NCBI GenBank assembly: GCA_014843695.1
Contig: CM026390.1
Coordinates: 56,532,156-56,596,155, forward strand
Direction: 5' to 3'
DNA length: 64,000 bases
Origin: Archivesica marissinica
Taxonomy: Eukaryota > Mollusca > Bivalvia > Venerida > Vesicomyidae
The notes beneath the pieces were generated by a model that was given only the letters and a program-made list of their open reading frames with translations, did no database searches and was not told where the DNA came from. The translations under genes were made by a program, and so were the position numbers. The stretch's first letter is position 1. Every line of letters starts with the position of its first letter. Below are positions 34,601 to 64,000 of the stretch, one piece after another.

Positions 34601-37600
34601 ATATGAGGTCATATTTTCCTCTCTAAAACCCTTTTTTTATCAGAAGATAGGATCAAATTAATATTATGTTATTATGTTATCGTCTCGTTTCCGAATAAAT
34701 ACAAGGCTCAACTGTTTTTTGCTACACATTGTTTTGTGAAACAATTAACGCAGAGAATAAAAGCATTATGAAATGAGACCCTGTATTGTTGGATTCTACC
34801 TTGCTTAACGTATTTAAAGGGACATAACTTACAGCAAACTATTGATTATGCTTTTACTTGAAATCTTTATAATATTGAATTAAGCATTACTTGAAATATT
34901 AACTCGCCTCATGTCTGCTGCTTACAGACACCATGTTTCTACACTTTGACAGGTGTGTGGGACATGTCATGTAACATTTTTTTTGACATGGACGCCAGAA
35001 GTTTCTGTTCAGAATTGTTACATTTAAACTGTTTATTACCAGTACAATATTGTGGAAAGAGGGCATATGTGTAATAAGAAAATATGTAAATATATTTAGG
35101 TATGTTTACTTTACTTTCGACTTTTGAACGACTTTAGTTTCAACTTAACATTGTTTTCATTAGACAATAACCATGCAACTTTCCAAAAATAGTCTGTCCA
35201 ATACTTCACTGCGATTGTTAGACAACAGAAATAAGAATTCAAAGTAGATACGCCATTCTGGATACTGCGCCACAACAGATGCCACCATGATACAGTTATG
35301 TAGATGATAGCTAAATATAAGTTACCTCGATCATGCAGGGCTAGCAAGACCTCAGAACCCAGGAATGTTCGGTACAAGTAGCCCGGAATAGGTTTGCCCG
35401 CCCATTCTATACTATCATCATATGCCTGTCGGTTTGGGGCGTGTGGATCTGGCTCAGCCAAGATGTACCGGTAACCATCCTTGTTGAACGGATGTTCCGT
35501 GGGGTATCCGTGGGGTGCAAGGCGTGCAATATTCACAACCTCTCTGCAATATATATTAAAAATAGCTCTATACAAACAGAAACTGCACATAATGTGAATA
35601 CTTATATAACTCATTAATTAACTGCGCGATACTGTCATGATGTAATGGGCAAATCACTACTAAAAATGAAAAAATATTGAAAATTCTGGATTACATAATA
35701 AAGATTACCGCATAAGACTATTGGGCCATAGAAATATCTAACAACCAGATGATGTGCAGGGCTGCAGATATTATACTGCCCAAAATTGTTAAAAGGTCAC
35801 ATAAAAATAGATATTTTCTACTGTCAACAAAAAAATATGACTCATCACTGTAGTCTTCCAAATAAAATGTTATGCAGTTTAAACAACAGATTTCACCCCA
35901 AACAAGATCAATTGCAATAGTATTTATGACACAATTATTGAAATCGTTGCCTTGCCCTTTCTTTACTTTAGTAATGGTTCCCAGCCTTACCCTTTATTTA
36001 CTTTAGTACTGGTTCCCAGCCTTACCGTTTCTTTATTTTAGTATTGGTACACAGCCTTATTTAGCCTTTAGTTGCTTTAGTACTGGTTCCCAGCCTTACC
36101 CTTTCTTTATTTTAGTATTGGTACCCAGCCGTAGTTAGCCTGTAGTTGCTTTAGTACTGGTTCCCAGCCTTACTGTTTCTTTATTTTAGTATTGGTACCC
36201 AGCCGTAGTTAGCCTGTAGTTGCTTTAGTACTGGTTCCCAGCCTTACTGTTTCTTTATTTTAGTATTGGTACCCAGCCTTAGCCTTTAGTTGCTTTAGTA
36301 CTGGTTCCCAGCCTTACTCTTTCTTTATTTTAGTATTGGTACCCAGCCTTAGCCTTTAGTTGCTTTAGTAGTGGTATGCAACCTTACCCTTTCTTTACTT
36401 TAGTATTGGCACCCAGCTGTAGAAATTCCTGATTTGCCTTCCTCTTCTGACCTCGCAAACCCTCTGTAAATACAAGACAGAGCTGTAGTAAGCACAATAA
36501 GACTCAACTGTGTGGTGCTTTACAATAGACAATATCTATGAAACATATACCCACAATATATGAACCAATCCTATGGTTCTTCTATTTAAACGCTTTTATT
36601 TCTTAAGTTCATGGTCATTGTGTGGCATGGAATATTTGAAAGCATTACTTTCCGACTGATTTCAACCTATAATAGCTCATGCTGCCAGCACAGCCAGCGC
36701 AAGTGCAAAACTGTCACTTTCAGCTAGCGCCAGTGCAAAACTGTCACCTTCAGCCGGCACAAATCTGTCACTTTCAGCCGGCGCCAGAACAAAACTCACT
36801 TTCCACTAATATGTGCAAGACAAAAAGTGCAAGTACAATACAGCTAACTCCTGAGTTTATTAAAGGTCAATCTATTATTGATAAATGAAGGCTAAGATTT
36901 TCAGGAAATTTGAGGTTATTTACTTACTATCTACAGGAACACCTGGTTTCTGACTGGTTATTTACTTACTATCTACAGGAACTCCTGGTTTCTGACTGGT
37001 TATTTACTTACTATCTACAGGAACTCCTGGTTTCTGACTGGTTATTTACTTACTATCTACTGGAACTCCTGACTGGTTATTTACTTACTATCTACAGGAA
37101 CTCCTGGTTTCTGACTGGTTATTTACTTACTATCTACAGGAACACCAGGTTTCTGACTGGTTATTTACTTACTATCTACTGGAACTCCTGACTGGTTATT
37201 TACTTACTATCTACTGGAACTCCTGACTGGTTATTTACTTACTATCTACAGGAACACCAGGTTTCTGACTGGTTATTTACTTACTATCTACTGGAACTCC
37301 TGACTGGTTATTTACTTACTATCTACAGGAACTCCTGGTTTCTGACTGGTTATTTACTTACTATCTACTGGAACTCCTGACTGGTTATTTACTTACTATC
37401 TACAGGAACTCCTGGTTTCTGACTGGTTATTTACTTACTATCTACAGGAACACCAGGTTTCTGACTGGTTATTTACTTACTATCTACTGGAACTCCTGAC
37501 TGGTTATTTACTTACTATCTACTGGAACTCCAGGTCTCTGACTGGTTATTTACTTACTATCTACAGGAACTCCAGGTCTCTGACTGGTTATTTACTTACT

Positions 37601-40600
37601 ATCTACAGGAACTCCAGGTCTCTGACTGGTTATTTACTTACTATCTACAGGAACTCCAGGTCTCTGACTGGTTATTTACTTACTATCTACTGGAACTCCT
37701 GGTTTCTGACTGGTTATTTACTTACTATCTACAGGAACTCCAGGTCTCTGACTGGTTATTTACTTACTATCTACTGGAACTCCAGGTTTCTGACTGGTTA
37801 TTTACTTACTATCTACAGGAACTCCAGGTCTCTGACTGGTTATTTACTTACTATCTACTGGAACTCCTGGTTTCTGACTGGTTATTTACTTACTATCTAC
37901 AGGAACTCCAGGTTTCTGACTGGTTATTTACTTACTATCTACAGGAACTCCTGGTTTCTGACTGGTTATTTACTTACTATCTACAGGAACTCCTGGTTTC
38001 TGACTGGTTATTTACTTACTATCTACAGGAACTCCAGGTTTCTGACTGGTTATTTACTTACTATCTACAGGAACTCCAGGTCTCTGACTGGTTATTTACT
38101 TACTATCTACAGGAACTCCTGGTTTCTGACTGGTTATTTACTTACTATCTACAGGAACTCCTGGTTTCTGACTGGTTATTTACTTACTATCTACAGGAAC
38201 TCTTGGTTTTTGACTGGTTATTTACTTACTATCTACAGGAACTCCTGGTTTCTGACTGGCCTGTATCTGTGTAGTCCCCTTTGTTAAAATCTCAAATGCT
38301 GGTGTTACTTTATACAAATCCTGCAAATCAAACCAACATTACTATAAAGGAACAATACACAACAGGGTTCCATCTGTCTGAATGTTTGTCTGCACCACTT
38401 CTGTCGCCAATTGAAAAACACCGGAGCCAATTAAAAAAACTTGGAGCCAACTAAGAGCCATATAGTTCACAAATAAATATTTGAAGCCATATATTTGACA
38501 AAACATGCGCCAAAAAAAAACATTTTTAAAAAATGTTGCGCCAAATATTTTCGCCAATTCACAAAATTTAGCGCCAATATTTTTTTGGGTCGCAATTGGC
38601 GCCATTGGCGACCGACAGCGGGAACCCTGACACAGTTATAAGCTACATACTATTTCAACTCGAGAATTGCTAGCCTCTATTTTCTCCATTATGTGTTTGT
38701 GATTTTCTGGCTTAAAGACACACCAACAGTTCAGGTCATATTGGTGGAGGAAGACCCTGGATGCCCATTCAAGCAGTATTCAGGCACAGACGAATGCCCG
38801 GGTACAACCACCAACCTGTATATACCGTATCTGTATTATGCATAGCTATGACGTGTGGCTTTGACACCATATCAACATCAGGAGAGAGATATATGACAGT
38901 ATAAGTACGGTTAGAGAGCACCCTTTAAAGCTCTCGACTGATGTGGTTCACGTTTGTATATCATCCAGATGGTTCCCATCTATAATAATAGTTCTCAGAA
39001 CAAATAACGTGTTCAACTTTGCATGCTTATAACATGACTGTCAACAATGTTCACTGATACACAATCACTAGAGACTAGCTTCGACTCTACGTCTTTGTCT
39101 TATAGAGGAGCATGAACATCACGTGGTGGAAAAGCGTGACCTTGAATCTAATGACATACAGAAGCTGCAACGATAGCATTTACATCGTACAGATAATACC
39201 GCATCAAACAGTTCTCAACATCTTGGTTTCAAATCTCATTTATATGAAAATTGAAATATGAGGAGTGGAACTTACTGAGTTGAGCAATCCAAACTGTATG
39301 TCACCGGCAGCTGTCTCATTACCAAAGAAAATGTCTGTCTCCTTTGCCTGAAATATTTGTTAAATGGGTTAGTTGCAGGGTATATCCTGATTTATTAATT
39401 GACAATAGAATATTGTCTGCAACATGACGTTAGTGCAATACGAGCTCGTAAGTATCGATGCTTAACTCGGCCAATATGGAGCTAGCACGGCCAACATGAG
39501 ATTTACGCGGCCTGTATGAAAATGTCGAAATCTGATTGGTTGTTGGACCTCGGCCTGTATGAAATTGCCTGACGAAATTCTTTTGCAGTCGCCATCTTGG
39601 AAAAAAGCAAAAAACTTGTTATTAATATTTGTTACTTTATTAGTTAGAATCTTTAAATAAAAGAGTGTAATAGCGATCTTTGTTTGGTCACGGCAATTTA
39701 GAATTGATTAAATTTTAGTTGTGATATGCCTAGCGTTTGCAATACGCACAGTTCAGAACTTCTCACGTTGACCGTGAAAACTGTCTTCTGGCTGTGTTTA
39801 CAAACACTAAACAGAAAGTAGAAATACCAGGTAGTGATGAGTGACGATGGAGTGACGACGATGAAGGTGAGCTGATGCTCAAACTGTTAGCCGATGATAT
39901 AGTGCATCTTGTTATATTCTAGTCAATTAATAAAATTGTCATTAATTAAATGATTTCATATTGGCCTTGTTATTGGGATGAAGCCAGTCATATTCGGCCT
40001 CGGTCCAATTACGCCTGTATGTGTCATGTAGAACCAAGCTGAAGATAAGAAGCTAACTAACACCTACACTGCGGCAATACTGGCACAAAAACATGTTTTG
40101 CTTAAGACGGTAATAAATTGCTTAAACTGTTTACAACAAAGAATATCTGAAAATTACAAATACATGTATTTCATTACGTCCGCGGTGTGAGTGGCCGTCC
40201 TTGGAGAGAAACTTTCTGACCGCAGAAATCGCACCCGCGGCGTCTTGCAGATTTTGAAATGGCTGAGGGAACTTGCACTATATGTTTAAGATTCCCTGAT
40301 GTGAACATCATATTGCCATGATTCAAAACAACGACATCCTATACCAATATTGCAAACTTTATAGTAAATATAAAGTTTTGCAAAAAACACCGATAATCAA
40401 ATTTTGACAAAAACATGACATACTTTCCACTTAGGCTGATTTATTTGGAATCCGTATTCTAATCTTGCGCAATTCAGAAGAGAAACTTTTTAATCAATGG
40501 AAGGTTTCGGTTACAATTTTGATATGCACTCGATAAAATCAGGGGTAATTTCAAAAGTAAAACCACAATGCAAAACAACCGGTATGTCGCTTGACTGATT

Positions 40601-43600
40601 GTTTATTGGATTTAGGGTAAACCAACAGCCATATACATGTAGTGACTGTTTAACTTCATTGTGTGGATAAAGACACACAGTCCAAGCAGTATTCCAGTGT
40701 AGAGTGACTGACCCAAACAAACAGTGTAATGTTTTGTACCAGAGTTTTGTGTACTGTATTATGCCATGTGAGTTTGATCCTGCGTGGCATCGTGGTCATG
40801 TTTTCCCAGTGCTTCTCTATGAATGGAATAATCTCCTGAAATACAGAATAATCTCCTGAAATACAGAATAATCTCCTGAAATACAAAATAATCTCCCGAA
40901 ATATAGAATAATCCCCCTAAATACAGAAAAATCTCCTGAAATACAGCGAAATACAGAATAATCTCCCGAAATACAGTTCTAATAATCCCCCGTAATACAG
41001 AATAATCTCCTGAAATACAGAATCTCCAGAAATACCGTATAGAACAATCTCCCAAAATATAGAACAATCTCCCGAAATACAGAATAATCTCCTGAAATAC
41101 AGAATCCGAAATACAGAATTATCTCCCGAAATACAGAATAATCTCCCAAAATACAGAACAATCTCCCAAAATACAGAATAATCTCCCGAAATACAGAATA
41201 ATCTCCTGAAATATAGAACAAACTCCCAAAATACAGAATAACCTCCCGAAATATAGAATAAACTCCCAAAATACAGAATAATCTAGAAATACAGAATAAT
41301 CTACCGAAATACACAGCACAACTCCCGAAATACAGAATAATCTCCCAAAATACCAAATAATCTCCTGAAATACAGAATAATCTCCCGAAATACAGAATGA
41401 GCTCCTGAAATATGTACAATAAACTACTGATCCAAGCGTGTACAAAATACCAAGTTTCTGTGAGGAAACGATCATCCCATTACCTTTCTTTACATCACTT
41501 ATGATCAATATATCCATGTTCGATTAGCGCAGCTCTATCTTCTCACCAATGCAACCCGAGTTCGATCCTTGGACCGGGAAGTATGTGAGATGGTACGATG
41601 GTTGCCAGATCGGACATGTGGGTTTTCTCCGGGTGCTCCGGTTTCCTCCCACACGAATGACCACATTTACGCTTTCATCCGCACCAATGAGAGCGATTAA
41701 TATAAGTTGTTAATGCTTGTTTCGCAATCATTATAAAATAAATAAAGTTTAAACTAAAATATCCATTTTATGTACATATACATGTATCAGAACGTTTTAT
41801 ATATAGTTTTAAATAACATCCCAACCCATATACAAAATAGCTGGAAAAAGCCAAGCGAATCACAGAAAGTGGCTGTTTAGCACAGGTGGCTTCTAAATAC
41901 AGGTCAAATGTATAATAAAACAACATTTTGGGAATCTGGAAACTGGCTGCTTAACACAGGTTGGCTGCTTAATAGAGGTGACCACTAACACAGGTTTGAC
42001 TGTACATATAATATACACATTTTTATTCACAACACATTCTGTGGAAACTGTTGGCACAATTGTCATTTCATGAACTTATTACTAGATGCTACCTATGGAG
42101 CACGTCAGCAGGCCCATGGTTAACACATTGGATTGAAAATGCCTGTGATGCCACATTTCATAATAACAATACTGATAGCATTTCAGATGTGACTATTGTT
42201 TTGTTTTGATTTTAGGGTTTAACGTCGTACCAACAGCGTATGTTATATGGTGATTCTCCAGCTAATATTGGTGGAGGAAGACCTTGGGTGACCCTAAGAT
42301 CAGCATTGCATGCAAGGACGGGCACCCTGGTAGAACCATTTACCTACCACAAGTCAGCTGGATAGCTTCGATTTTCGACACCCCCAGTCGAACCTACAGC
42401 AGTGAGGGGAAAGTGATTTGAAGTCAACAACTGTAACCACTTGTGACTATCAACCAAGGTATTTAACAGTTACAAATTTAACACACACAATTCAGAGAGA
42501 TGAACACCTTACCTTATCCCTGGAAAACATCACTCTATTTTCATCGCGCACTTTTGATATGTATGTTAAGTTGGCTAATGTAGTGTAGCATATCTGCTGG
42601 AAACCTACAATGGACGTGCAAAACATTTCATTCCAAGACACTGTCTATGTACGGCTCTCGTAGCTCGCAAAATGGACAACAGTCAATGAGAGACATCACT
42701 AATTTCTAATACATCCCTTGGCAGGTAATATCTGATTGATCCCAAAATGTAAATAGGTCCTTTTAGTTGGAATCCTTTGTTTTTACTGCTGTTCCCTAAC
42801 CAGATGTTGCGGTATGATAAATGTGATTTTATCAAAATCAAAATCGTGTTTTACAAATAAGTACCGATTGCATATACTGTGGGATATCTGTTGAGATATA
42901 GCAACTTAGTAATCATAAGAAATGAACATGGAATATGATTGCTAGCATGTTGTGCAAAGGAAACAACGATAAAAACAGAGGAAAACACTTAATAGGACCT
43001 ATCTACTTTTAGGGAGTATTCAGGGGCAGTAACTGACCGATGTCTCTCATTGTATATACAAATGTATAATAGTAGAGAATTCAATGGAGATGTTATCCAT
43101 GTTATTTAACATTTTTTAACATTTCTCCATGGGAGTATTTTTGCTTAGTCATATACATTGTCATTTATAATATACAGTGTGTCAACAGGATTGATAAGAA
43201 AGCATAAGATAATCATATAGATCCCTTTCCTGTAAATAAGTATACTTTTTACATGTACATAGAACACGAAGTAAAACCTGATATCTTAAAGTCATACATG
43301 TAGCCCTGTTCAAAATAACAAAATTACAAGTTATTCCAGATTACAAGTTATTCCAGATTACAAGTTATTCCAGTGTCCCATTTTCTATGCCAGCAATTTT
43401 AATAAAACATGCTAAACGTGATGTTTGGAGTTCGAGCCACACTGGAGCCGTTACGATTGTGCTCTTAGGCAAGGCTTTTAAATTCCATGTTGCCTCTTCT
43501 CTCTCCCTCGTGGCGATGGATTCCATCAGGAATGAGGTCTCGAGAGTGATTAATATAAGTTATAAGAACTTGTTTCGCAATCGAGCTAAAATATATTTGT

Positions 43601-46600
43601 ATAAAAAAACGTGATGTATGCATATTAAATTAATTGCCAGGGTTCGCGCTGTCGGTCGTCAATGGCACCAACTGCGACAAAATACAAATACTTGTGAATT
43701 GGCGAAAATATTTGGTGCAAAATGTTTTGTCCAATACATGACTTCAAATATTTACAAGCGAACTATATAGCTCTTAGTTGACTCCAAGTCTTTCAAATTG
43801 CTCCAGTTTGTTACAATTGGCAACAGTAATGGTACAGACAAACATTCAGACAGTAGGGAACCCTGATTGCTATTATCATATGATTTGTGACGGAGAAATG
43901 GAGCTATGAAGAGCCGAACGATCTACGAACTATCCAAGTCAAAATAAGATTATATATTTTCCAACAGTGTACAAGTACATCACAAAAGTTAAAACGGATG
44001 GAATTCATTACCACAAAACTTGAGTAATAATGGTGTGTGTGTTTTACGTTAATAATAATAATAAAGTCTTTATTTAACGAGAGAACTCATTTGAATATAA
44101 ACCTATTATTATACATATTGTATGCATAGGACAAATAAACATGAGACAATTATAAAAACATAAATAGTTACACACAACATGTTGATAACAATCATGATTT
44201 GACATAAGAAACATGCAATTTGAAGTTTAGACATACACAGTTTCAAAATATAATAATAATAAAGACTTTATTTAACGAGAGAACTCATTTGAACAATTAA
44301 GTCAATCTACCATGAGGCCCTCAACAAATTATGCAGGTTCTATGGCATAATGTCTTAGAATATACATGGAAATGTTTCGTTGCTCAATCCCTGAAGAGGT
44401 TATACCGGTATGTACATATAATAACATTGCTCGATACTTTAAGCCCATTATGCCATTTTACTTCTTTTCATTATTACTGCAAAATTGTCCTTTATTAAAT
44501 AGATATAGATAATATCAATACTATAGTTTTTCATAACACAAATATGTAAATACAGATAATTCACAAACAATATTGTGTGTGTTTTACGTTTATTTATCGT
44601 CGCTACAGGTTGCCCATATGAGCGATGCCTCCTGAAGAGATTAGTCATTTTAGATTTTTGGAGGATAGTGATAGGCAATGATACAGACAGAGATCCATTC
44701 CAGAGTCTCCTCTGGTTCTTTTACGTGCACGGTGTACAACACCCACACGAGACCTCGGTTTAAAGTCCCATCTGAAAGACTGTTAATTTTATTAGGGTCA
44801 GATGGGGGGATCGAACCTGCGATCCCTGGATTACCATTCCAGCGTATTACCACTGGACTACAGATCCGTCTGTGAGTAATAATGGTGTTGTAGCTAACAC
44901 ATTTATATAATAGCAACTATTTTGAGGTTTGTGACCGTCAGCTTGAGCAGGAATATGACTTTAATTCTACGTAAATGTAATAGAGGGATACTGACAGACT
45001 AGCGGTAATCAACTCCAGTTGTCAGTGGCTACTTAATGTAATTTAACCCTTTCAACACCAAGTAACTCACATGGACTGGTCCATGATATTCATAAACCAA
45101 TAAATGAATCAGAAAATCACATTTCGACAAGTTCATTTATCAAAATGGGTAATTATGTCTAAAAATAGTCATATCACTGGCAAAAAGTGCAGATCCTGAT
45201 GAGACGGCTCGTCACGAGCCGGCTCATCTGGATCTACACTTTTTGTAAGCCTATTTAGAGGTCTGTGGTATTGAAAGGGTTAACAGTTGGTACATTCTTC
45301 ACAGGAAAATAACTGAAAAGCTCATACTAGCTTGTTTCTTCTGGAAACTTTCTAAATCGTTTGTGTTACACAGCTTGCACTGGTAGATGTAGTTACACAT
45401 GAATGGAATACACGTCCTGCAAACATATACAGTAACATATAATTAACAAGAGGCTTGCTCCTGGCTGCTACACTCAGTGTCAGTGAACATGATTCTGGAA
45501 AAAACAAGATGACCACACAATTTTGGATGAGATATATCTCAGTGAGGTTGGGTTAAATCACACAACAAAGGAATTTCTGAAATGTCAACAATATGCATCA
45601 ACCTAAATCTTGATTAGAGAGATGAAACTAGATTTTCAAGATTTCAGTTCAGAATAACCAGTGGTTCTCGCGTACATGTAGTTCGAACTCGCAACTTTCG
45701 AACTCGCAACTTTCGAACTCGCAACTTCTAGATGCTACTCGACGGCCACCATATCCTTTATACCATGGAGGCTCCACATATAATTTTATCTGTTCGACAA
45801 GGGTTACAAGCACAGTGGTAGCACGTTCGCATAAGGAGCGAAAATCCGGAGTTCGAATCCCACTGGAGCCATTATGATTATGCCCTTTAGACAAGGCATT
45901 TAAATTCCACATGCCTCTTCTCTCTCCCTCGTGGCCATAGATTCCATCAGAAATGAGGTCTCGAAAGTGATTAATATAAGTTGTAAGAACTTGTTTCACA
46001 ATCGAGCTAAAATAAATTTGTATAAACTAAGTGTCACAAGCTTTGCTAAATTAGGTATCCCCTCTATTATGTTCATTGTTCTTAGAAAGCACCCATTTCC
46101 ATCATCAGCATTCTAATGCTTCATTTCATATTAGCAAACTTCAAAAAGAGTTTGGAAGAGAAAGGTTTTAACATGCCTCAGTTTTAGCCGATATAACAGC
46201 ATGTACTCAGTCTTACCCGATATAACAGCATGTACTCAGTCTTACCCGATATAACAGCTTGTACTCAGTCTTACCCGATATAACAGCATGTACTCAGTCT
46301 TACCCGATATAACAGCTTGTACTCAGTCTTACCCGATATAACAGCATGTACTCAGTCTTACCCGATATAACAGCTTGTACTCAGTCTTACCCGATATAAC
46401 AGCATGTACTCAGTCTTACCCGATATAACAGCTTGTACTCAGTCTTACCCGATATAACAGCATGTACTCAGTCTTACCCGATATAACAGCTTGTACTCAG
46501 TCTTACCCGATATAACAGCATGTACTCAGTCTTACCCGATATAACAGCTTGTACTCAGTCTTACCCGATATAACAGCATGTACTCAGTCTTACCCGATAT

Positions 46601-47341
46601 AACAGCTTGTACTCAGTCTTACCCGATATAACAGCTTGTACTCAGTCTTACCCGATATAACAGCTTGTACTCAGTCTTACCCGATATAACAGCTTGTACA
46701 GTCAGCATGGTACCACTTAGAACAGGCCTGGCACTGGAGTTCAACCGAACCCAAATTACGACCTTTCCCACTGAAACAAAAATGTTATATTTATGTTCTA
46801 GAGAAGTAAATCTGTAAAGATCGAGTACTTGGAAGTGATCATTTGATTATTGGCTAGATGTATAATGCATTAAAGCCTTTAATGCATTATACATCTAGCT
46901 CTCTAACCCTTTAAGGGATCGTTGATTTACTTGAATTTAAGATATTTGGAGTATTTCGGATGAGTCATGTCCGAATACGGATGTTAGTATATCTGAATGT
47001 TTGACTAAAACACAGTAGTGTAATGATGTTAACCCTGGGATGAGACAAAATAACCAATTTCTAGAAATATAATTACGGATTTTGTGGCAGTTGTGACAGC
47101 GCAGTGGTAGCGCGTTCGCTTCAGGTACAAAATGTCTTGCTAACTAGAATCTGTGTGGGCATGTGTGGGCTTGAAATACCAATTAAAAACTTATTGTTTG
47201 ATTGGTGCAGGTTCCATTCATTTGCATTATACCCCAATACTACAATGGAAGTACTAACCAGTAACATAGCTCTTCATCCTGTACAAGTCCAAGGCCCGGG
47301 GGTCCTGGCAGTCCATATCCCGGAGGTCCAGGTCTATCCAT
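4425..47341 (-). CDS. ASH2L: ASH2L orthologue (COMPASS/MLL complex subunit), 12 coding exons, 3' end outside the window
   Basis: ASH2L is the Ash2 subunit of the nuclear WDR5-RBBP5-ASH2L-DPY30 module, which activates SET1/MLL histone H3K4 methyltransferases. Twelve exons on the minus strand join in phase to 432 codons without a stop. Residues 26-74 form a PHD finger, about 75-190 the winged-helix region, and 214-238 a basic linker (QKRKAN). The stretch [20 protein letters not shown] falls near 260-280. The SPRY domain starts near 312 ([30 protein letters not shown]). Order and spacing match the animal family. Vertebrate proteins have roughly another 125 residues after the FKDK that ends the last exon here, so the 3' exons are off the left edge. 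Every intron is GT..AG. Minisatellites and mobile elements stretch this part of the gene to 43 kb. The exon calls are read directly; the orthology rests on remembered family sequence. Confidence 0.94.
4712..5395 (-). mobile_element. SINE-like repeat E expanded internally by a minisatellite
   Basis: Both flanks of the 35-bp array match one interspersed repeat also seen at 42200, 49845 and 38720. The left flank is its TAGAACCACCGACCTTCC...GATGGATAGCTTCC end (in complement), and the right flank its GTGACTCCAGCT...GGAAGAC part. The array replaces the segment between them. Confidence 0.7.
4799..5350 (+). repeat. 35-bp minisatellite, 16 copies
   Basis: Unit GCTCGGATGGGGCAGACAAG + ATCTTCTTTCACACT, with 34- and 33-bp variants (CTCTTTC deletion; CAATG deletion). 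Units 10-15 repeat the variant order of units 3, 4, 6-9, showing an internal block duplication. All three plus frames are open by accident. Confidence 0.95.
5445..5463 (+). repeat. Run of 19 G
   Basis: Uninterrupted G19 followed by GAGGAGGTGGGG-type sequence, with G-quadruplex potential. It may be miscounted in assembly. Confidence 0.85.
5889..6023 (+). mobile_element. CAGGGTT MITE fragment, family G
   Basis: Shares the left end and the CTTGGAGCCAACTAAGA / ATAAATATTTGATAAA segment with 38363-38629; the right half is missing. It ends about 120 bases from ASH2L exon 11. Confidence 0.55.
6145..6234 (-). CDS. ASH2L: ASH2L exon 11: SPRY domain
   Basis: Acceptor TATTTTATTTACAG, donor GTATGTTA. 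It reads [20 protein letters not shown] then ARIGWSQQL, matching VRKGAWYFE...TAARLGWSQ of vertebrates. Split glycine codons at both ends fit exons 10 and 12. Confidence 0.97.
6269..6511 (-). mobile_element. TTAA-flanked MITE, family F
   Basis: TTAACCGTTTCAACACCACA at one end and GTGTTGAATGGGTTAA at the other, opposite orientation to the other three copies. No coding capacity. Confidence 0.82.
6735..6922 (-). mobile_element. SINE family C, head missing
   Basis: Closely similar to the body of the copy at 44576-44873 (shared GAAGAGATTAGTCATTTTAG), ending at TTTAAAGTCCCA before the head would start. Confidence 0.75.
7258..7355 (+). repeat. AAGAGGGCC-type interspersed repeat
   Basis: CAAGAGGGCCATGATTGTCC ... 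CGCTCACCTGACTCC ... TTTTAACAACTTTAAAAGAG. The same module recurs at 13678-13775 beside ASH2L exon 10 and once in each macrosatellite unit (for example 18218-18320). Recalled as common in molluscs; not checked. Confidence 0.6.
7395..8070 (+). repeat. 56/70-bp minisatellite, about 10 copies
   Basis: Unit CTTCACACAACCCACTTCAC...ATGTTCCATATCCATGTAG (70 bp). Two or more copies lack the first 14 bases (56 bp). CTCCTA/CTTCTA and AAATG/CATG variants distinguish copies. Confidence 0.92.
8356..9641 (+). repeat. 41-bp minisatellite, 31 copies
   Basis: Unit AACACTATGGACTATTAGAA + ACAATYGTGTCCATCACAAGC. The copies are essentially identical except for one C/T position, and one disrupted copy at about 9300 (CACTACACAACAACACATGG). 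Confidence 0.97.
9642..10044. other. Spacer between the 41-bp and 90-bp arrays
   Basis: Unique-looking intronic sequence. No feature recognised. Confidence 0.5.
10045..13556 (+). repeat. 90-bp minisatellite, about 39 copies, with higher-order structure
   Basis: Unit GGGTTTATGAACATTGGTTT...GTCAAGAGGYGCTCTATGGGGGAAA. The first two copies lack ATGTAC. A 270-bp three-unit pattern repeats between 11818 and 12400. A block at 10590-11150 recurs at an offset of exactly 1806 bp. It fills the start of the intron after ASH2L exon 10 (minus strand). Ninety bases being a multiple of three keeps two plus frames and one minus frame open. Confidence 0.97.
13560..13637 (-). CDS. ASH2L: ASH2L exon 10: start of SPRY domain
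   Basis: 78 bases reading [20 protein letters not shown] and IRAAN, matching the vertebrate SPRY start. The acceptor is TCTTGTTTGTAG. The donor GTAACC at 13559 is followed within a few bases by the first unit of the 90-bp array, so the exon directly abuts 3.5 kb of tandem repeat. The polypyrimidine side of its acceptor resembles the 35-bp repeat of the macrosatellite. Confidence 0.96.
13678..13775 (+). repeat. AAGAGGGCC-type interspersed repeat
   Basis: AACAAGAGATCATGGTCCTG ... CGCTCACCTGACTCC ... CAACTTTGAAAGATCATTGT, the same module as at 7258 and in the macrosatellite. It lies 40 bases upstream (in transcript sense) of the exon 10 acceptor. Confidence 0.6.
14093..14189 (+). repeat. GTGTG/GGTGT microsatellite
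   Basis: Imperfect (GGTGT)n and (GTGTGGTGTG)n. Confidence 0.9.
14190..14262 (-). mobile_element. SINE family C fragment
   Basis: Shares the junction segment GTCTGAAAGACTGTTAATTT and a degraded head with the 44.6-kb copy. It directly follows a GT microsatellite. Confidence 0.55.
14621..16246. mobile_element. Outer inverted-repeat pair enclosing the 1-kb element
   Basis: GGTGGAATCTATGCTCGGCG at 14621 and its complement at 16225-16246 match 21 of 22 bases (TIR through GTA). A second copy of TACGCCGAGCATAGG lies just inside the right end. No target duplication is visible. It may be an older transposon into which the GC-rich element inserted. Confidence 0.4.
14707..15704. mobile_element. 1-kb inverted-repeat element with GC-rich arms (PIF/Harbinger-like target site)
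   Basis: Perfect 16-bp terminal repeats TGCATCAGTCCCACTG (14707-14722; complement at 15689-15704) are flanked by TTA on each side (14704-14706, 15705-15707), a 3-bp duplication typical of Harbinger. Each arm (14720-15050, 15345-15690) is a GC-rich run of degenerate GGACCGGGA / TGAACCGTGG words; the 300-bp centre is AT-rich. Proline-rich frames in the arms are by-products. No transposase. Confidence 0.65.
15708..16563. other. Remainder of the outer inverted-repeat element and spacer
   Basis: Non-coding. Contains the right outer terminal repeat at 16225-16246. No frame resembling a transposase. Confidence 0.45.
16564..18966 (+). repeat. Macrosatellite unit 1 (most diverged)
   Basis: Core differs most from the others. 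It contains an extra tandem copy of a ~245-bp segment (about 17560-17804 and 17805-18050), which explains its 2403-bp length. Nested array 18402-18966, about 16 copies. The plus-strand frame open in other units is broken here. Confidence 0.92.
17612..17635 (+). promoter_or_regulatory. Octamer plus TATA-like motif in macrosatellite core (speculative)
   Basis: ATGCAAAT followed eight bases later by TATAAATA. Present once in every macrosatellite unit and twice in unit 1 (also 17863-17886). The octamer/TATA pairing occurs in some Pol II promoters, but nothing here shows transcription. Confidence 0.2.
18967..21147 (+). repeat. Macrosatellite unit 2 (type A)
   Basis: Core nearly identical to unit 4. 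Nested array 20547-21147, about 17 copies, ending with the variant TATATGTAAACACACAAG. Confidence 0.93.
21148..23282 (+). repeat. Macrosatellite unit 3 (type B)
   Basis: Shares with unit 5 a 12-bp deletion (GCTCTACTAATAGCAATG). Nested array 22717-23282, about 16 copies. Confidence 0.93.
23283..25462 (+). repeat. Macrosatellite unit 4 (type A)
   Basis: Core as in unit 2, but the nested array (24862-25462, about 17 copies) opens with two ACATTTACAACA variants as in unit 7, so core and array have different histories. Confidence 0.93.
25463..27589 (+). repeat. Macrosatellite unit 5 (type B)
   Basis: Has the 12-bp deletion of unit 3 and a private 6-bp deletion at about 25972. Nested array 27023-27589, about 16 copies. 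Confidence 0.93.
27590..29278 (+). repeat. Macrosatellite unit 6 (short array)
   Basis: Shares private substitutions with unit 7 (ACATCCATAGC, TGTCCTTGAACC). Nested array reduced to three copies (29168-29278) but keeping both terminal variants. Confidence 0.93.
29279..31704 (+). repeat. Macrosatellite unit 7 (long array)
   Basis: Core essentially identical to unit 6. Nested array 30859-31704, about 24 copies, the longest. Confidence 0.93.
31705..33746 (+). repeat. Macrosatellite unit 8 (last)
   Basis: Core mixes A- and B-type variants and has a 3-bp insertion (GACAGCAGGAG). Nested array 33288-33746, about 13 copies, decaying at its right end (ACAACCAGGTAAATG short units) where it passes directly into the 47-bp array. 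Confidence 0.92.
33747..34395 (+). repeat. 47-bp minisatellite, about 14 copies
   Basis: Unit TGTGTAGCCATAGATACAAT + AGAGCACTCCAGAAAATACACATTCTA. Copies are almost identical; the last one runs into A9. Confidence 0.95.
34396..35325. other. Unique intronic sequence before ASH2L exon 9 donor
   Basis: AT-rich. A TGACGTCATA-like CRE word occurs at about 34557. No gene recognised. Confidence 0.45.
35326..35543 (-). CDS. ASH2L: ASH2L exon 9: conserved pre-SPRY segment
   Basis: 218 bases from acceptor TATATATTGCAG to donor GTAACTTA. It contains [28 protein letters not shown] and LLALHDR, the most conserved stretch of the family, and is the strongest single identification in the window. It ends with one base (G) that completes an alanine codon with exon 10. 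The following intron is 21.7 kb. Confidence 0.97.
35957..36420 (+). repeat. ~70-bp composite minisatellite built from the exon 8 donor junction
   Basis: Half-units CTTTCTTTATTTTAGTATTGGTACCCAGCC and a shorter CTTTAGTACTGGTTCCCAGCC alternate about 6-7 times. In complement each main unit carries CTGGGTNCCAATACTAAA (exon end) and a GTAAGG donor. It overlaps exon 8 from 36388. Confidence 0.88.
36388..36463 (-). CDS. ASH2L: ASH2L exon 8: basic linker, possible nuclear localisation signal
   Basis: Acceptor TTGTATTTACAG, donor GTAAGG. It reads [20 protein letters not shown] and KVKK, corresponding to the GRGAKRKQQ linker of vertebrates. The lysine/arginine cluster is a plausible nuclear localisation signal (inference). 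The last ~32 bases plus donor recur in the intron as a composite ~70-bp minisatellite. Confidence 0.88.
36673..36803 (+). repeat. ~30-bp tandem repeat, four copies
   Basis: CAGCCGGCGCCAGTGCAAAA + CTGTCACTTT with indels. No link to a splice site seen. Confidence 0.8.
36914..38260 (+). repeat. 42-bp minisatellite built from the exon 7 donor junction, about 33 copies
   Basis: Unit GGTTATTTACTTACTATCTA + CAGGAACTCCTGGTTTCTGACT, with 33-36-bp variants lacking the CTGGTTT part. In complement every unit carries the exon 7 end (CAGAAACCAGGAGTTCCTGT) and donor GTAAGTAAATAACC. It overlaps exon 7 from 38230. Confidence 0.94.
38230..38320 (-). CDS. ASH2L: ASH2L exon 7: linker
   Basis: Acceptor TTTGATTTGCAG; it reads [20 protein letters not shown] then [10 protein letters not shown] plus one base. 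The donor GTAAGTAA is chosen over an earlier GT because only it gives correct phase into exon 8. The last 31 bases of the exon and the donor are part of the first unit of the 42-bp array that runs to 36914. Reading past this donor meets an in-frame TAA at once. Confidence 0.88.
38363..38629 (+). mobile_element. CAGGGTTCC-ended MITE, family G
   Basis: Ends CAGGGTTCC...GGAACCCTG. The inner sequence GTCGCCAATTG...ACTTGGAGCCAACTAAGAGC is shared with 5889-6023 and 43639-43866. ACACA-like repeats flank it imperfectly. CAGGG ends recall hAT, but the class is uncertain. Confidence 0.62.
38705..38825 (+). mobile_element. Interspersed repeat E fragment
   Basis: Contains ACACCAACAGTTCAGGTCAT, GGTGGAGGAAGACCCTGG and GGGTACAACCACCAACCTGT, the landmarks of repeat E. 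Confidence 0.6.
39276..39347 (-). CDS. ASH2L: ASH2L exon 6: end of winged-helix region
   Basis: 72 bases, phase 0 to 0, between acceptor AAATATTTCAG and donor GTAAGTTC. It reads [20 protein letters not shown] followed by LLNS. The FGLL motif and the following Asp-Leu across the junction match the vertebrate protein. No tandem array touches this exon. Confidence 0.9.
39348..40712. other. ASH2L intron between exons 6 and 5
   Basis: Contains GGCC-AATATG / GGCCTGTATGAA words near 39470-39560 and 39955-40020 in partly inverted arrangement, possibly an old mobile element. Exons 5 and 6 join in phase without needing anything here. Confidence 0.4.
40713..40835 (-). CDS. ASH2L: ASH2L exon 5: winged-helix region, helix-rich core
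   Basis: 123 bases, phase 0 at both ends, reading [20 protein letters not shown] then [20 protein letters not shown] and a final Trp. This matches IIPFIDKYWECMTT...MTWPNN in the vertebrate protein. The donor is GTCAGT after TGG, a weaker site chosen because it aligns LFVW-AKE with the family sequence. The acceptor TCTGTATTTCAG is repeated nearly thirty times upstream as a 20-bp minisatellite. Confidence 0.9.
40831..41410 (+). repeat. 20-bp minisatellite built from the exon 5 acceptor junction, about 28 copies
   Basis: Unit CTGAAATACAGAATAATCTC, degenerate. In complement each unit is GAGATTATTCTGTATTTCAG, the acceptor of exon 5 preceded by a copy of the exon's own first bases (GAGATTATTC). 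Confidence 0.9.
41519..41755 (+). mobile_element. tRNA-headed SINE, family A
   Basis: Plus-strand copy with head GATTAGCGCAG, B box GTTCGATCC, the conserved GGTTTCCTCCCACACGAATG core and the tail GATTAATATAAGTTGTTAAT...AAAGTTTAAACT. It lies in the intron between ASH2L exons 4 and 5. Confidence 0.8.
42205..42370 (+). mobile_element. Interspersed repeat E
   Basis: TAGGGTTTAACGTCGTACCA, GGTGGAGGAAGACC, GGTAGAACCATTTACC and CAGCTGGATAGC occur in the same order as at 49845-50015. Confidence 0.65.
42513..42604 (-). CDS. ASH2L: ASH2L exon 4: winged-helix region
   Basis: It reads [18 protein letters not shown] and ends VMFSRDK before donor GTAAGGTG, matching ALANLTWQSR...MFSKDK in the vertebrate protein. 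The acceptor is chosen at CCATTGTAG because it restores phase after exon 3. The CAG triplets just downstream (CCAGCAG) could serve as alternative acceptors but would break the frame. Confidence 0.92.
42605..43321. other. Intronic sequence, nothing recognised
   Basis: No repeat, frame or RNA gene recognised. Confidence 0.45.
43322..43372 (+). repeat. 17-bp tandem repeat, three copies
   Basis: ATTACAAGTTATTCCAG three times without change. Confidence 0.9.
43423..43604 (+). mobile_element. SINE family B, 5' truncated
   Basis: Starts within the head just before the B box (GTTCGAGCCACACTGG) and runs to a TTTGTATAAA tail. 5' truncation is usual for LINE-mobilised copies. Confidence 0.78.
43639..43866 (-). 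mobile_element. CAGGGTTCC-ended MITE, family G
   Basis: Inverted relative to 38363. Left end CAGGGTTCGCGCTGTCGGTC, right end GTAGGGAACCCTG, flanked by ATTGC on both sides (possible 5-bp duplication). Confidence 0.62.
44104..44565 (+). repeat. Duplicated ~450-bp segment, copy 1
   Basis: Shares with 58755-59185 the order TACATATTGTATGCATAGGA, GTTGATAACAATCATGATTT, AATAATAATAAAGACTTTAT and TTTAACGAGAGAACTCATTT. The AATAATAA/TTTATTTAACG piece occurs once more at 44047-44100, so it is an interspersed element rather than a simple segmental duplication. Confidence 0.7.
44576..44873 (-). mobile_element. tRNA-headed SINE, family C
   Basis: On the minus strand the head (ATCTGTAGTCCAGTGGTAAT, B box GGTTCGATCCCC) is followed by a ~190-bp body ending at the complement of GTTTTACGTTTATTTATCGT. 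The head alone resembles a tRNA, but the attached body shared with other copies makes it a SINE. Confidence 0.8.
45043..45283 (+). mobile_element. TTAA-flanked MITE, family F
   Basis: Cleanest copy: TTAACCCTTTCAACACCA ... TGGTATTGAAAGGGTTAA, with the GGCTCGTCACGAGCCGGCTC hairpin centre. It ends 45 bases from ASH2L exon 3. Confidence 0.85.
45328..45416 (-). CDS. ASH2L: ASH2L exon 3: end of PHD finger, start of winged-helix region
   Basis: Acceptor TATGTTTGCAG, donor GTATGAG. It reads [16 protein letters not shown], then [13 protein letters not shown]. This corresponds to the CLPFMTNY...C..C...FLRKQA region of vertebrate ASH2L. C71 and C74 complete a C4HC3 set. Phase is 1 base in and 1 base out, matching both neighbours. 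Confidence 0.93.
45681..45728 (+). repeat. 15-bp tandem repeat, three copies
   Basis: GAACTCGCAACTTTC three times. Confidence 0.88.
45800..46029 (+). mobile_element. SINE family B, full length
   Basis: A box AGCACAGTGGTAGCACG, B box GTTCGAATCCC, body and tail complete. It lies in the intron between ASH2L exons 2 and 3. Confidence 0.82.
46181..46696 (+). repeat. 29-bp minisatellite built from the exon 2 donor junction, 18 copies
   Basis: Unit CGATATAACAGCATGTACTC + AGTCTTACC. In complement each carries the exon 2 end CTGTTATATCGG and donor GTAAGACT. Position 13 alternates A/T: A A T A T A T A T A T A T A T T T T. It overlaps exon 2 from 46681. Confidence 0.95.
46681..46770 (-). CDS. ASH2L: ASH2L exon 2: core of the PHD finger
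   Basis: Ninety bases between acceptor TTTGTTTCAG and donor GTAAGACT. It reads [20 protein letters not shown] and then HADCTSCYI, supplying PHD ligands C41, C44, H49 and C52. The Glu-Leu-Gln-Cys stretch matches the vertebrate ASH2L sequence. The last 16 bases of the exon, together with the donor, are the founder of the 29-bp minisatellite that follows in the intron, so the array begins inside this exon. Confidence 0.93.
46853..46899. repeat. Perfect 23-bp palindrome with a one-base centre
   Basis: Arms 46853-46875 (GCTAGATGTATAATGCATTA...) and 46877-46899 are exactly complementary around a single C. It lies in the ASH2L intron between exons 1 and 2. Confidence 0.92.
47089..47136 (+). mobile_element. 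SINE family B, head only
   Basis: Only the A-box half of the head (GACAGCGCAGTGGTAGCGCG, then TTCGCTTCAGGT) is left, about 120 bases beyond the donor of ASH2L exon 1. Confidence 0.6.
47259..47341 (-). CDS. ASH2L: ASH2L exon 1 (coding part): start codon, Pro/Gly N-terminus, first PHD cysteines
   Basis: The ATG at 47341-47339 sits in a favourable context (A at -3, G at +4). It is the first ATG after an in-frame TAG about 50 bases upstream, which is why I chose it. The 27 complete codons read [10 protein letters not shown], then a second Pro/Gly segment, then an acidic stretch ending LCY. C26 and the split codon for C28 are the first two PHD ligands. The donor is GTTAGTAC at 47258. A possible acceptor (ACATTTTGCAG) lies about 35 bases upstream of the ATG, so a separate 5' UTR exon is likely but was not located. 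The exon ends with two bases of a codon. Confidence 0.82.
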
Positions 47342-59376: not shown

Positions 59377-59667
59377 TAAGGAATAAATCGTGGGTTAATA
59401 GTTTCCATCGGAGTTTGAACTACATTGGGCGTGGTTAAAGTGTGTGTCTACTGTGAAGTCACAACGGCTGGAGCATACAGGTAGAGCATCCTTTTGAACT
59501 CAAACAGACTGGAATCTGCACATACAGGTAACACATACATGTCTACTTTGAATCAACAAGCAACACAATCAATTGAAATCAGACTTGATGGAACTTTTGC
59601 AGGTAGAGTCATGTTTAAATCCTATGTATATTCCAACTGTAAAAGGCTGTATTCCAGTAAATCACAA

Positions 59668-60200: not shown

Positions 60201-60626
60201 GGAAACCAGGTAAACTTGAAAATGCTTCACTCGCTGAAAGAAATACACATTTGTATCTGTATATATATATATATCTAGTTTAAACCTACATATTTGTAGA
60301 CAGCAGGACGACCACCAAGCATTGACTCAGGCAAGGTGGGTACCTGGGTACAACCTGCAACTACCTCAAGCCGGATGTACAGCAGATCTTAAAGCAAATA
60401 TTATTCTACATGAGTTTATAAAGCATTAAAAATGATGCCCTAACGAAAGATATGTCATAATGATAATACAAGAGTTTGTACTTGTGACAAGTTTGTATAT
60501 GAAGTACAAACTTCATTATTTCTATAAGTGGAAACTAACATGGGTTATTGTAGACCCTTCAAAATAAAATTATGAATGGAACAAAATTTTCATGATTGCA
60601 ACTTCTGAACATAACTCATACTTCTA

Positions 60627-63022
60627 GAGAATATAGATCATACTTACAAAGGATATAGATCATACTTACAGAGGATATAGATCATACTTACAGATGATAT
60701 AGATCATACTTACAGAGGATATAGATCATACTTACAGAGGATATAGATCATACTTACAGAGAATATAGATCATACTTACAGAGGATATAGATCATACTTA
60801 CAGAGAATATAGATCATACTTACAAAGGATATAGATCATACTTACAGAGGATATAGATCATACTTACAGAGGATATAGATCATACTTACAGAGGATATAG
60901 ATCATACTTACAGAGGATATAGATCATACTTACAGAGGATATAGATCATACTTACAGAGGATATAGATCATACTTACAGAGGATATAGATCATACTTACA
61001 GAGGATATAGATCATACTTACAGAGGATATAGATCATACTTACAGAGGATATAGATCATACTTACAGAGAATATAGATCATACTTACAGAGGATATAGAT
61101 CATACTTACAGAGGATATAGATCATACTTACAGAGGATATAGATCATACTTACAGAGGATATAGATCATACTTACAGAGGATATAGATCATACTTACAGA
61201 GGATATAGATCATACTTACAGAGGATATAGATCATACTTACAGAGGATATAGATCATACTTACAGAGGATATAGATCATACTTACAGAGGATATAGATCA
61301 TACTTACAGAGGATATAGATCATACTTACAGAGGATATAGATCATACTTACAGAGGATATAGATCATACTTACAGAGGATATAGATCATACTTACAGAGG
61401 ATATAGATCATACTTACAGAGGATATAGATCATACTTACAGAGGATATAGATCATACTTACAGAGGATATAGATCATACTTACAGAGGATATAGATCATA
61501 CTTACAGAGGATATAGATCATACTTACAGAGGATATAGATCATACTTACAGAGGATATAGATCATACTTACAGAGAACATAGATCATACTTACAGAGGAT
61601 ATAGATCATACTTACAGCGAATATAGATCATACTTAGAGAAGATATAGATCATACTTACAGAGGATATATATCATACTTACAGAGAACATAGATCATACT
61701 TACAGAGGATATAGATCATACTTACAGAGAACATAGATCATACTTACAGAGGATATAGATCATACTTACAGAGAACATAGATCATACTTACAGAGGATAT
61801 AGATCATACTTACAGAGAATATAGATCATACTTACAGAGGATATAGATCATACTTACAGAGGATATAGATCATACTTACATAGGATATAGATCATACTTA
61901 CAAAGGATATAGATCATACTTACAGAGAATATAGATCATACTTACAGAGGATATAGATCATACTTACAGAGGATATAGATCATACTTACAGAGGATATAT
62001 ATCATACTTACAAAGGATATAGATCATACTTACAGAGGATATATATCATACTTACAGAGGATATATATCATACTTACAGAGGATATAGATCATACTTACA
62101 GAGGATATAGATCATACTTACAGAGAATATAGATCATACTTACAGAGGATATAGATCATACTTACAGAGGATATAGATCATACTTACAGAGAATATAGAT
62201 CATACTTACAAAGGATATAGATCATACTTACAGAGGATATAGATCATACTTACAGAGGATATAGATCATACTTACAGAGGATATAGATCATACTTACAGA
62301 GAATATAGATCATACTTACAGAGAATATAGATCATACTTACAAAGGATATAGATCATACTTACAGAGGATATAGATCATACTTACAGAGGATATAGATCA
62401 TACTTACAGAGGATATAGATCATACTTACAGAGGATATAGATCATACTTACAAAGGATATAGATCATACTTACAGAGAACATAGATCATACTTACAGAGA
62501 ATATAGATCATACTTACAGAGAATATAGATCATACTTACAGAGGATATAGATCATACTTACAGAGGATATAGATCATACTTACAGAGGATATAGATCATA
62601 CTTACAGAGAATATAGATCATACTTACAAAGGATATAGATCATACTTACAGAGGATATAGATCATACTTACAGAGGATATAGATCATACTTACAGAGGAT
62701 ATAGATCATACTTACAGAGAATATAGATCATACTTACAGAGGATATAGATCATACTTACAGAGGATATAGATCATACTTACAGAGGATATAGATCATACT
62801 TACAGAGAATATAGATCATACTTACAGAGAATATAGATCATACTTACAAAGGATATAGATCATACTTACAGAGGATATAGATCATACTTACAGAGAATAT
62901 AGATCATACTTACAGAGGACTTACAGAGGATATAGATCATACTTACAGAGGATATAGATCATACTTACAGAGAACATAGATCATACTTACAGAGGATATA
63001 GATCATACTTACAGAGAATATT
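60627..63022 (+). repeat. 22-bp minisatellite built from a donor junction, about 109 copies
   Basis: Unit ATATAGATCATACTTACAGA + GG (GG, GA or AA variants). In complement every unit contains TCTGTAAGTATGATC, that is, a full GTAAGTAT donor. It ends at the donor of the exon at 63013-63106. Confidence 0.96.
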
Positions 63023-63106
63023 TTCTGGCACTCGTAAGACATTGTTTCTACTGGATATATTTGGCATGTCATTGGTTACCCAAGTAGGAGCCTTCCATAT
63101 ACCCCA
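63013..63106 (-). CDS. Next exon of the same unidentified gene
   Basis: 94 bases, acceptor TCCTGTTTACAG, perfect donor GTAAGTAT. It reads WGIWKAPTWV, TNDMPNISSR and NNVLRVPENIL plus one base, in phase with the exon at 63251-63349. About 109 tandem copies of its donor follow in the intron. Function unknown. Confidence 0.7.
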
Positions 63107-63250
63107 CTGTAAACAGGAAATAAACAACAGTTATACACCACTATGCTCACATATTCCCAAATACCTCTCCTTATCCTTTCTCTTACACAGAACTTTATTA
63201 TTTCCTTTTCTTTTACACAGAAGAACTTTATTATTTCATACAAAACTCAC

Positions 63251-63349
63251 CTGTTTATTCTTTTCAGCAATTATTGCAGAGATGGGAACTTTCAGTTCAA
63301 ATGAATCACTGTTTGTCAACATCACAGTCAGCAAAACTGTATACTCACA
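63251..63349 (-). CDS. Internal exon of an unidentified gene
   Basis: 99 bases, phase 0, bounded by acceptor GCGTATATTTCAG and donor GTGAGTTT. It reads CEYTVLLTVMLTNSDSFELK, VPISAIIAEK and NKQ, with alternating hydrophobic residues that suggest beta strands. I do not recognise the family. The acceptor is the founder of the 25-bp array that runs off the right edge. Confidence 0.7.
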
Positions 63350-64000
63350 CTGAAATATACGCAATAACCTTAATCAAACAATTATAACAGTTTTGCTGAA
63401 ATATATGCAACATTCTCTCACTGAAATGTATGCAACATTCTCTCACTGAAATATATGCAACAACCTCTCACTGAAATATATACAACATTCTCTCACTGAA
63501 ATGTATGCAATATTCTCTCACTGAAATATATGCAACATTCTCTCACTGAAATATATGCAACATTCTCTCACTGAAATGTATGCAACAACCTCTCACTGAA
63601 ATATATGCAACATTCTCTCACTGAAATGTTTGCAATATTCTCTCACTGAAATATTTGCAACATTTTCTCACTAAAATATATGCAACATTCTCTCACTGAA
63701 ATAATTATATGCAACATTCTCTCACTGAAATATATGCAACATTTTCTCACTGAAATATATGCAACAATCTCTCACTGAAATATATGCAATATTCTCTCAC
63801 TGAAATATATGCAATATTCTCTCACTGAAATATATGCAACATTCTCCCACTGAAATATATGCAACAATCTCTCACTGAAATATATGCAACATTCTCCCAC
63901 TGAAATATATGCAACATTCTCTCACTGAAATATATGCAACAATCTCTCACTGAAATATATGCAACATTCTCTCACTGAAATATATGCAACAATCTCTCAC
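63350..64000 (+). repeat. 25-bp minisatellite built from an acceptor junction, about 25 copies, running off the edge
   Basis: Unit CTCTCACTGAAATATATGCA + ACATT. In complement TGCATATATTTCAG|TGAGAG, a copy of the acceptor and first bases of the exon at 63251-63349 (TATATTTCAG|TGTGAG). Confidence 0.92.

What the first reader, a model, noticed from the sequence alone, without database searches (positions are those of the whole stretch)
35957..64000. Six minisatellites are tandem copies of exon-intron junctions
In six introns the array unit contains the end or start of the adjoining exon plus its splice site: donors at 46681 (29 bp x18), 38230 (42 bp x~33), 36388 (~70 bp x~7) and 63013 (22 bp x~109), and acceptors at 40835 (20 bp x~28) and 63349 (25 bp x~25). 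Four are in ASH2L and two in the neighbouring gene. The exon calls were fixed by codon phase and homology, independently of the arrays. Known background: AGGT-containing tandem duplications have been proposed as a route to new introns. Repeated expansion of splice junctions in one locus into long decoy-site arrays is, to my knowledge, not described. Possible causes are duplications that stay neutral because one intact site is always kept, or a mechanism tied to splice sites or R-loops. A functional role (U1 or U2AF sink, intron protection) is speculation.
Basis: partly seen in the sequence, partly recalled or inferred. Interest (0 to 1): 0.93.

Follow-up and report, generated by a model that had tools for sequence, protein, structure and literature searches.

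The report
Splice-junction minisatellites ("mirages") in bivalve ASH2L
In the ASH2L gene of what is likely a clam-like mollusc, four exon-intron borders are each repeated in tandem, about 7 to 33 times, inside the neighbouring intron, the kind of array already described in amphioxus as a "mirage"; splicing is predicted to use only the copy that touches the exon.

Summary
Twelve exons join into an open 1269-nt coding stretch. At four borders the exon edge and its splice site form the unit of a minisatellite on the intron side: donors at 46681 (29 bp x18), 38230 (42 bp x33) and 36388 (70 bp x7), acceptor at 40835 (20 bp x29). Exonic letters in the units match the exon 18/18, 28/28, 27/29 and 10/10. 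The two arrays at 60616-64000 look alike, but their "neighbouring gene" is unproven: no homologue or family found. A 90-bp array touches the exon 10 donor but holds no exon.

Array ends lie near exon edges more often than chance in this window (all 40 arrays: 7 against 1.0; the four verified ASH2L cases alone: 4 against 0.84, weaker).

"Not described" is wrong. Amphioxus genes (Adh3, globins, TnC, PGBD5) carry such "mirages", and human CBS has a 31-bp VNTR across an exon end. This is a new member of that kind; my searches showed none in molluscs. Best explanation: tandem growth tolerated because the exon-touching copy keeps working; inner donors would meet stops within 4-8 nt. Decoy motifs show no overall protection. 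Genome-wide enrichment and RNA could not be tested.

The parts
46177..46699 (-). Donor array, ASH2L intron 2: 29-bp unit x18 (18 exon + 11 intron letters)
   Evidence: 18/18 exon letters; donor GT kept in 17 of 18 copies
46681..46770 (-). ASH2L exon 2 (ASH2-type PHD finger), authentic donor CGG|GTAAGA
40826..41412 (-). Acceptor array, ASH2L intron 4: 20-bp unit x29 (10 intron + 10 exon letters)
   Evidence: 10/10 exon letters; CAG in 9 of 29 copies, including the authentic one and the next two
40740..40835 (-). ASH2L exon 5 ([10 protein letters not shown]...), authentic acceptor TATTTCAG|GAG
36914..38259 (-). Donor array, ASH2L intron 7: 42-bp unit x33 (28 exon + 14 intron letters)
   Evidence: 28/28 exon letters; donor 9-mer identical in all 33 copies
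38230..38320 (-). ASH2L exon 7, authentic donor ATA|GTAAGT
35949..36417 (-). Donor array, ASH2L intron 8: ~70-bp unit x7 (29 exon + 41 intron letters)
   Evidence: 27/29 exon letters; GT kept in 6 of 7
36388..36463 (-). ASH2L exon 8, authentic donor AGG|GTAAGG
10044..13557 (-). 90-bp array x39 beginning at intron +3 of ASH2L exon 10; touches the donor, holds no exon sequence
   Evidence: 0 of 8 letters
13560..13637 (-). ASH2L exon 10, donor ACG|GTAACC
60616..63021 (-). Donor-like array: 22-bp unit x110 (9 exon-like + 13 intron letters) at a predicted, unverified exon end (63013)
   Evidence: 8/9; GT in 108 of 110; exon unverified
63013..63106 (-). Predicted exon of an unidentified gene (unverified)
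   Evidence: open frame and splice signals only
63341..64000 (-). Acceptor-like array: 25-bp unit, 26 copies counted, running off the window end, at a predicted, unverified acceptor (63349)
   Evidence: 7/9; CAG in 24 and TAG in 1 of 26
63251..63349 (-). Predicted exon of an unidentified gene (unverified)
   Evidence: open frame and splice signals only

Best explanation
By their anatomy these are 'mirage' minisatellites: short stretches across four exon-intron borders of ASH2L stand in tandem arrays on the intron side, and they likely arose as local duplications that grew and stayed because the copy touching the exon would still be the one spliced. Shown: unit content, order, orientation, the intact exon-touching site and the open reading frame. 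Inferred: the exon edge came first, because its coding letters are conserved in other bivalves in three of the four cases and because, in three arrays, copies drift from the exon-touching copy with distance. Inferred: growth was by replication slippage or unequal exchange. Predicted, untested: the other copies stay intronic, and a transcript using an inner donor would meet a stop codon within 4 to 8 nt and be degraded.
For: Exon letters in units 18/18, 28/28, 27/29, 10/10. Each of the four lies on the intron side with one copy flush to the exon. 1269-nt open CDS through the exon-touching sites; aligned to eight homologues it shows no insertion at these borders against P0001, and one extra residue inside the end of exon 8 against P0002 and P0003. 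Exonic parts of the units encode conserved residues: EIIP in 7 of the 7 homologues that cover it; TSCYIG exactly in 3 of 7 and near forms in the other 4; PGVPVD in 4 of 8. Identity to the exon-touching copy falls by thirds in i2 (0.989, 0.983, 0.966), i7 (0.976, 0.935, 0.912) and i4 (0.917, 0.883, 0.855). Stops 4, 8 and 4 nt past the donors of exons 2, 7 and 8. No overall protection of decoys: 11 substitution types in 36 donor-core positions against 26 in 127 others. Same anatomy in amphioxus, where PMC3087553 says Adh3 data and globin RT-PCR suggest undisturbed splicing (passages).
Against: No RNA from this species was available. Neutrality alone does not explain why array ends gather near exon edges, since purely intronic duplications are just as tolerable; a mutational bias or a benefit may be missing. 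Inner donors in i2 and i7 are identical to the real one over 9 letters in 16 of 17 and 32 of 32 other copies, so sequence strength alone does not tell the spliceosome which to use. The exonic part of the i8 unit (end of exon 8) is poorly conserved beyond P0001. Identity does not fall steadily in i8 (0.871, 0.879, 0.636) or in the 22-bp array (0.947, 0.947, 0.950); for the 25-bp array the reference copy is degenerate.
Confidence: 0.83

Rival explanations
1. The decoy arrays are functional: they bind U1 or U2AF and regulate splicing or protect the introns.
For: GT kept in 164 of 168 donor copies over four arrays, one of them at an unverified exon; in i7 all six substitution types fall in the 28 exon-derived positions and none in the 14 intron-derived ones.
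Against: Over the four donor arrays the core motif varies no less than the rest by number of substitution types (11 in 36 positions against 26 in 127). The acceptor array of intron 4 has no CAG in 20 of 29 copies. Few changes are expected for young, homogenised arrays.
Confidence: 0.06
2. Array first: a minisatellite already in the intron happened to hold splice-like letters and the exon end slid into it.
For: Not excluded for the two arrays at 60616-64000, whose exons are unverified, nor firmly for intron 8, whose exonic part is little conserved.
Against: In exons 2, 5 and 7 the exonic letters of the units encode residues shared with other bivalves, and copies drift away from the exon-touching one in i2, i7 and i4.
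Confidence: 0.05
3. The gathering at exon edges is a coincidence of a repeat-rich locus: arrays are everywhere and a few hit edges.
For: The window holds many arrays away from exon edges, for example 4794-5350, 8356-9640, and one inside a decayed reverse-transcriptase-like frame at 53752-53948. The locus was chosen after the fact. For the four verified ASH2L mirages alone, among 39 arrays, the excess is modest: 4 against 0.84, 455 of 63,799 shifts.
Against: 7 of 40 arrays against 1.02 with all edges, 10 of 63,799 shifts. The units hold exon letters, not just proximity.
Confidence: 0.15

Closest known systems
'Mirage' minisatellites of amphioxus (Adh3, globins BflGb6/BflGb9, TnC, PGBD5)
   Same: Minisatellite-like tandem copies spanning an exon-intron border; 5' and 3' borders; many copies keep AG/GT signals; authentic border kept (PMC3087553 and PMC3902484, passages read).
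   Different: Another phylum; four in one gene; up to 33 copies in ASH2L against 3 and 6 units quoted for BflGb6. Undisturbed splicing and length instability are reported there and untested here.
Human CBS 31-bp VNTR, c.1444_1467+7(16_21)
   Same: The name in PMC2630376 (passages) places the unit across an exon end and its donor, with 16-21 copies: the anatomy of the 29-bp array here.
   Different: A single, polymorphic site in a vertebrate; a functional association is claimed in the title of Lievers 2001 (seen only in a reference list).
Intron gain by tandem duplication holding AG/GT (Rogers; cited in PMC3087553)
   Same: Tandem duplication with splice signals; mirages were proposed as its raw material (passages).
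   Different: No sign of a new intron here: exon ends and protein length agree with the homologues.
Human internal tandem repeats in segmental duplications (PMC2812944, passages)
   Same: Minisatellite units of about 30 bp, some at exon-intron borders.
   Different: There they change exons and are linked to new introns in recent paralogues.

Membership tests
Mirage minisatellite (amphioxus) | Tandem unit spans an exon-intron border | tested here: met
   Exon letters 18/18, 28/28, 27/29, 10/10 at four homology-fixed borders
Mirage minisatellite (amphioxus) | Both 5' and 3' borders can be affected | tested here: met
   Three donors and one acceptor in ASH2L
Mirage minisatellite (amphioxus) | Authentic border kept next to the exon, extra copies on the intron side | tested here: met
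   By sequence only: open 1269-nt CDS through the exon-touching sites
Mirage minisatellite (amphioxus) | Regular splicing is not disturbed | not testable with these tools
   No RNA of this species
Mirage minisatellite (amphioxus) | Length (also somatic) instability | not testable with these tools
   One haplotype only
Mirage minisatellite (amphioxus) | Border copies escape homogenisation | tested here: inconclusive
   Diverged end copies in i2 (distal) and i8 (both ends), not in i7
Intron gain by tandem duplication | A new intron position inside a former exon | tested here: inconclusive
   Protein agrees with homologues at these borders; intron positions in relatives were not available
Introner or transposon-borne minisatellite | Same unit at several unrelated loci | tested here: inconclusive
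   Within the window the four ASH2L units differ and each matches its own exon; other loci could not be searched

The most novel reading that the evidence does not exclude
Exon-intron junctions are birthplaces of minisatellites across Bilateria: tandem duplication starts there more often than elsewhere in genes, through something tied to the junction (co-transcriptional splicing or chromatin), and amphioxus and bivalves are two lineages in which this runs freely, seeding introns with dozens of ready-made splice sites.
Probability: 0.27. Interest if true: 0.75.

Novelty: new member of a known kind. Interest (0 to 1): 0.5.

Why it matters
In the papers I saw, mirages are described from amphioxus, with a like-built repeat in human CBS. 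Four in one molluscan gene suggest a wider process. They supply long rows of intact splice sites, raw material for new exons and introns, and a natural experiment on how the spliceosome picks one of up to 33 identical donors.

Tried and rejected
Functional decoys: tested by per-position variation; no overall protection of donor motifs. R-loop link: unit GC skew positive in 5 of 6 units, few letters, left open. An exon-bearing unit in the 90-bp array of intron 10: rejected, 0 of 8 letters. Neighbouring gene: Pfam, PDB and protein searches negative; ORF list 47350-60610 (40 aa and up) read by eye without a recognisable exon of it; codon score not distinctive. Rfam: no match at gathering scores.

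Enrichment. My first statistic (an array contains an edge or ends near it) gave 6-7 against 0.85-1.67 by independent placement (0 to 53 of 20,000), but 6-7 against 3.1-4.5 by rotation (297 to 4380 of 20,000), because rotation drops edges inside long arrays. I replaced it with array ends near edges on the intron side. That depends on the limit: 1 against 0.135 at 5 nt (2538 of 20,000); 3 against 0.236 at 10 nt (105 of 63,999); 6 against 0.68 at 30 nt; 7 against 1.12 at 50 nt (44 of 63,999, near-zero shifts not taken out). Searches used 27 of the 40 arrays left after I merged the TRF rows by eye; the 13 dropped are 61 nt or shorter, and one of them (63177-63237) ends 14 nt from the unverified donor at 63251. 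One search uses all 40. The 27 include eight 35-bp arrays of one macro-repeat; counted once (20 arrays): 6 against 0.50 at 30 nt. The same-interval placement treats 47344-63012 as one interval, since its gene structure is unknown.

Full report
What the window is. The minus strand carries ASH2L. A joined translation of part of its exons hits solved structures named Set1/Ash2 histone methyltransferase complex subunit ASH2 (best E 4.4e-84), and the PHD part hits Pfam PHD_ash2p_like (5.8e-19). The best homologues of the 423-residue translation are an unnamed protein, P0001 (93% identity, longest contig 2267 nt, so likely a transcript), Mya arenaria (84%) and Dreissena polymorpha (81%) (836 proteins, best 120 listed). 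The source is therefore likely a heterodont bivalve; the species is not given. The window holds 12 coding exons; the last 117 residues of P0001 have no tblastn match in it, so the gene most likely runs off its low end.

Exon borders. Twelve exons with canonical sites join to 1269 nt without a stop. tblastn with P0001 and P0002 hits 11 of 12 exons (not exon 1); P0006 hits 9 (not 1, 6, 8); matches often run a few residues over the border, which phase and splice sites then fix. This sets the ASH2L borders independently of the arrays.

The arrays. Copies were parsed by wrap-around alignment. i2: 29 bp x18, 18 exon and 11 intron letters. i7: 42 bp x33, 28 and 14. i8: 70 bp x7, 29 and 41. i4: 20 bp x29, 10 intron and 10 exon (one further piece with more than half gaps was left out of the count). 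Exon letters match 18/18, 28/28, 27/29 and 10/10. All four lie on the intron side. Two similar arrays at 60616-63021 (22 bp x110) and 63341-64000 (25 bp, 26 copies counted) sit at predicted exons with 8/9 and 7/9 matching letters. A further array, 90 bp x39, starts at intron +3 of exon 10 and holds no exon sequence.

The neighbouring gene. Its 64-residue peptide finds no Pfam family, no PDB chain and no homologue (14 word-sharing candidates, none with E up to 10; may have been misaimed). Its codon score is reached by 324 of 1083 open windows of the same length in unmasked minus-strand sequence; these windows overlap. One frame is open over both exons, the other two hold 6 and 7 stops.

More than chance? 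Counted were arrays with an end within 30 nt of an exon edge on the intron side. With 27 longer arrays: 6 (four ASH2L mirages, the 90-bp array, the 22-bp array). Expected 0.68 under rotation of all edges, 0 of 63,799 shifts above 100 nt reaching 6; 0.72 under random placement, 2 of 20,000; 1.90 under placement within the same interval, 73 of 50,000. With ASH2L edges only: 5 against 0.58, 11 of 63,799; with the 21 arrays below 47300: 5 against 0.46, 0 of 63,799. With all 40 arrays: 7 against 1.02, 10 of 63,799 (the seventh is a 61-nt array at the unverified donor 63251); ASH2L edges only 5 against 0.87, 53 of 63,799; without the 90-bp array 4 against 0.84, 455 of 63,799. At a limit of 10 nt the excess is 3 against 0.24, at 5 nt 1 against 0.135. 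The limit and the locus were chosen after the fact, so no genome-wide claim follows.

Direction. The exonic parts of three units encode residues shared with other bivalves: EIIP in 7 of 7 covering homologues; TSCYIG in P0001, P0002 and P0005, near forms in the other four; PGVPVD in P0001-P0004 but not in P0005, P0006, P0011 or P0036. The end of exon 8 is little conserved beyond P0001. Copies drift from the exon-touching copy with distance in i2, i7 and i4, not steadily in i8 or the 22-bp array. Hence the exon edge most likely came first, best supported for exons 2, 5 and 7.

Decoy sites. Donor GT is intact in 17/18, 33/33, 6/7 and 108/110 copies. CAG is present in 9/29 copies of the i4 acceptor array; CAG or TAG in 25/26 of the last array. 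Over the four donor arrays the nine-letter core shows 11 substitution types in 36 positions against 26 in 127 others (gaps set aside), so there is no overall sign that decoys are kept by selection. One array, i7, looks different: all six substitution types are in exon-derived positions. Use of an inner donor would run into a stop 4 nt (exon 2), 8 nt (exon 7) or 4 nt (exon 8) past the real donor. At exon 5, a one- or two-unit shift of the acceptor breaks the frame with stops; a three-unit shift would insert 20 residues in frame, but that copy has CGG instead of CAG.

Comparison with the literature. [quoted passage not shown] PMC3902484 (passages) adds PGBD5 and TnC. The original Adh3 paper (PMC117041) is not held. 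PMC2630376 (passages) gives the CBS VNTR as c.1444_1467+7(16_21), which by its name spans an exon end and its donor. PMC2812944 (passages) treats internal repeats at human exon-intron borders. Searches joining minisatellite or tandem repeat with bivalve or mollusc and splice or exon-intron terms showed no such report in molluscs (none; 40 papers, 10 listed, judged by title and start of abstract only). The library lacks most subscription papers, so 'first in a mollusc' is tentative.

Verdict. A real feature, correctly read in anatomy for ASH2L, and a new member of a known kind. The open question worth pursuing is why array ends gather near exon edges, which neutrality alone does not explain.

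Noticed in passing
window 17557-33747: Intron 9 of ASH2L holds tandem macro-repeats of roughly 2.1-2.2 kb (about 97-99% alike in the matches printed), each with its own 35-bp minisatellite.
   Followed up: partly
window 53752-53948: A 28-bp x7 array inside a decayed reverse-transcriptase-like reading frame on the plus strand (recognised by eye): minisatellite growth within former coding sequence.
   Followed up: no
window 63328-63399: A perfect 13-nt inverted repeat (46 nt apart) links the start of the predicted exon at 63349 with the intron upstream of its acceptor.
   Followed up: no
window 10044-13557: The 90-bp array of intron 10 reads open for hundreds of codons on both strands (up to 677 plus, 399 minus), since 90 is a multiple of 3; its open frames are no sign of a gene.
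   Followed up: no
window 46177-46699: The 29-bp array shows a 58-bp higher-order period (A and T alternate at unit position 5) in its distal part.
   Followed up: no
window 43430-43600, 45813-46030, 52840-53010, 58530-58750: Several dispersed copies of one SINE-like element (judged by eye from the sequence).
   Followed up: no
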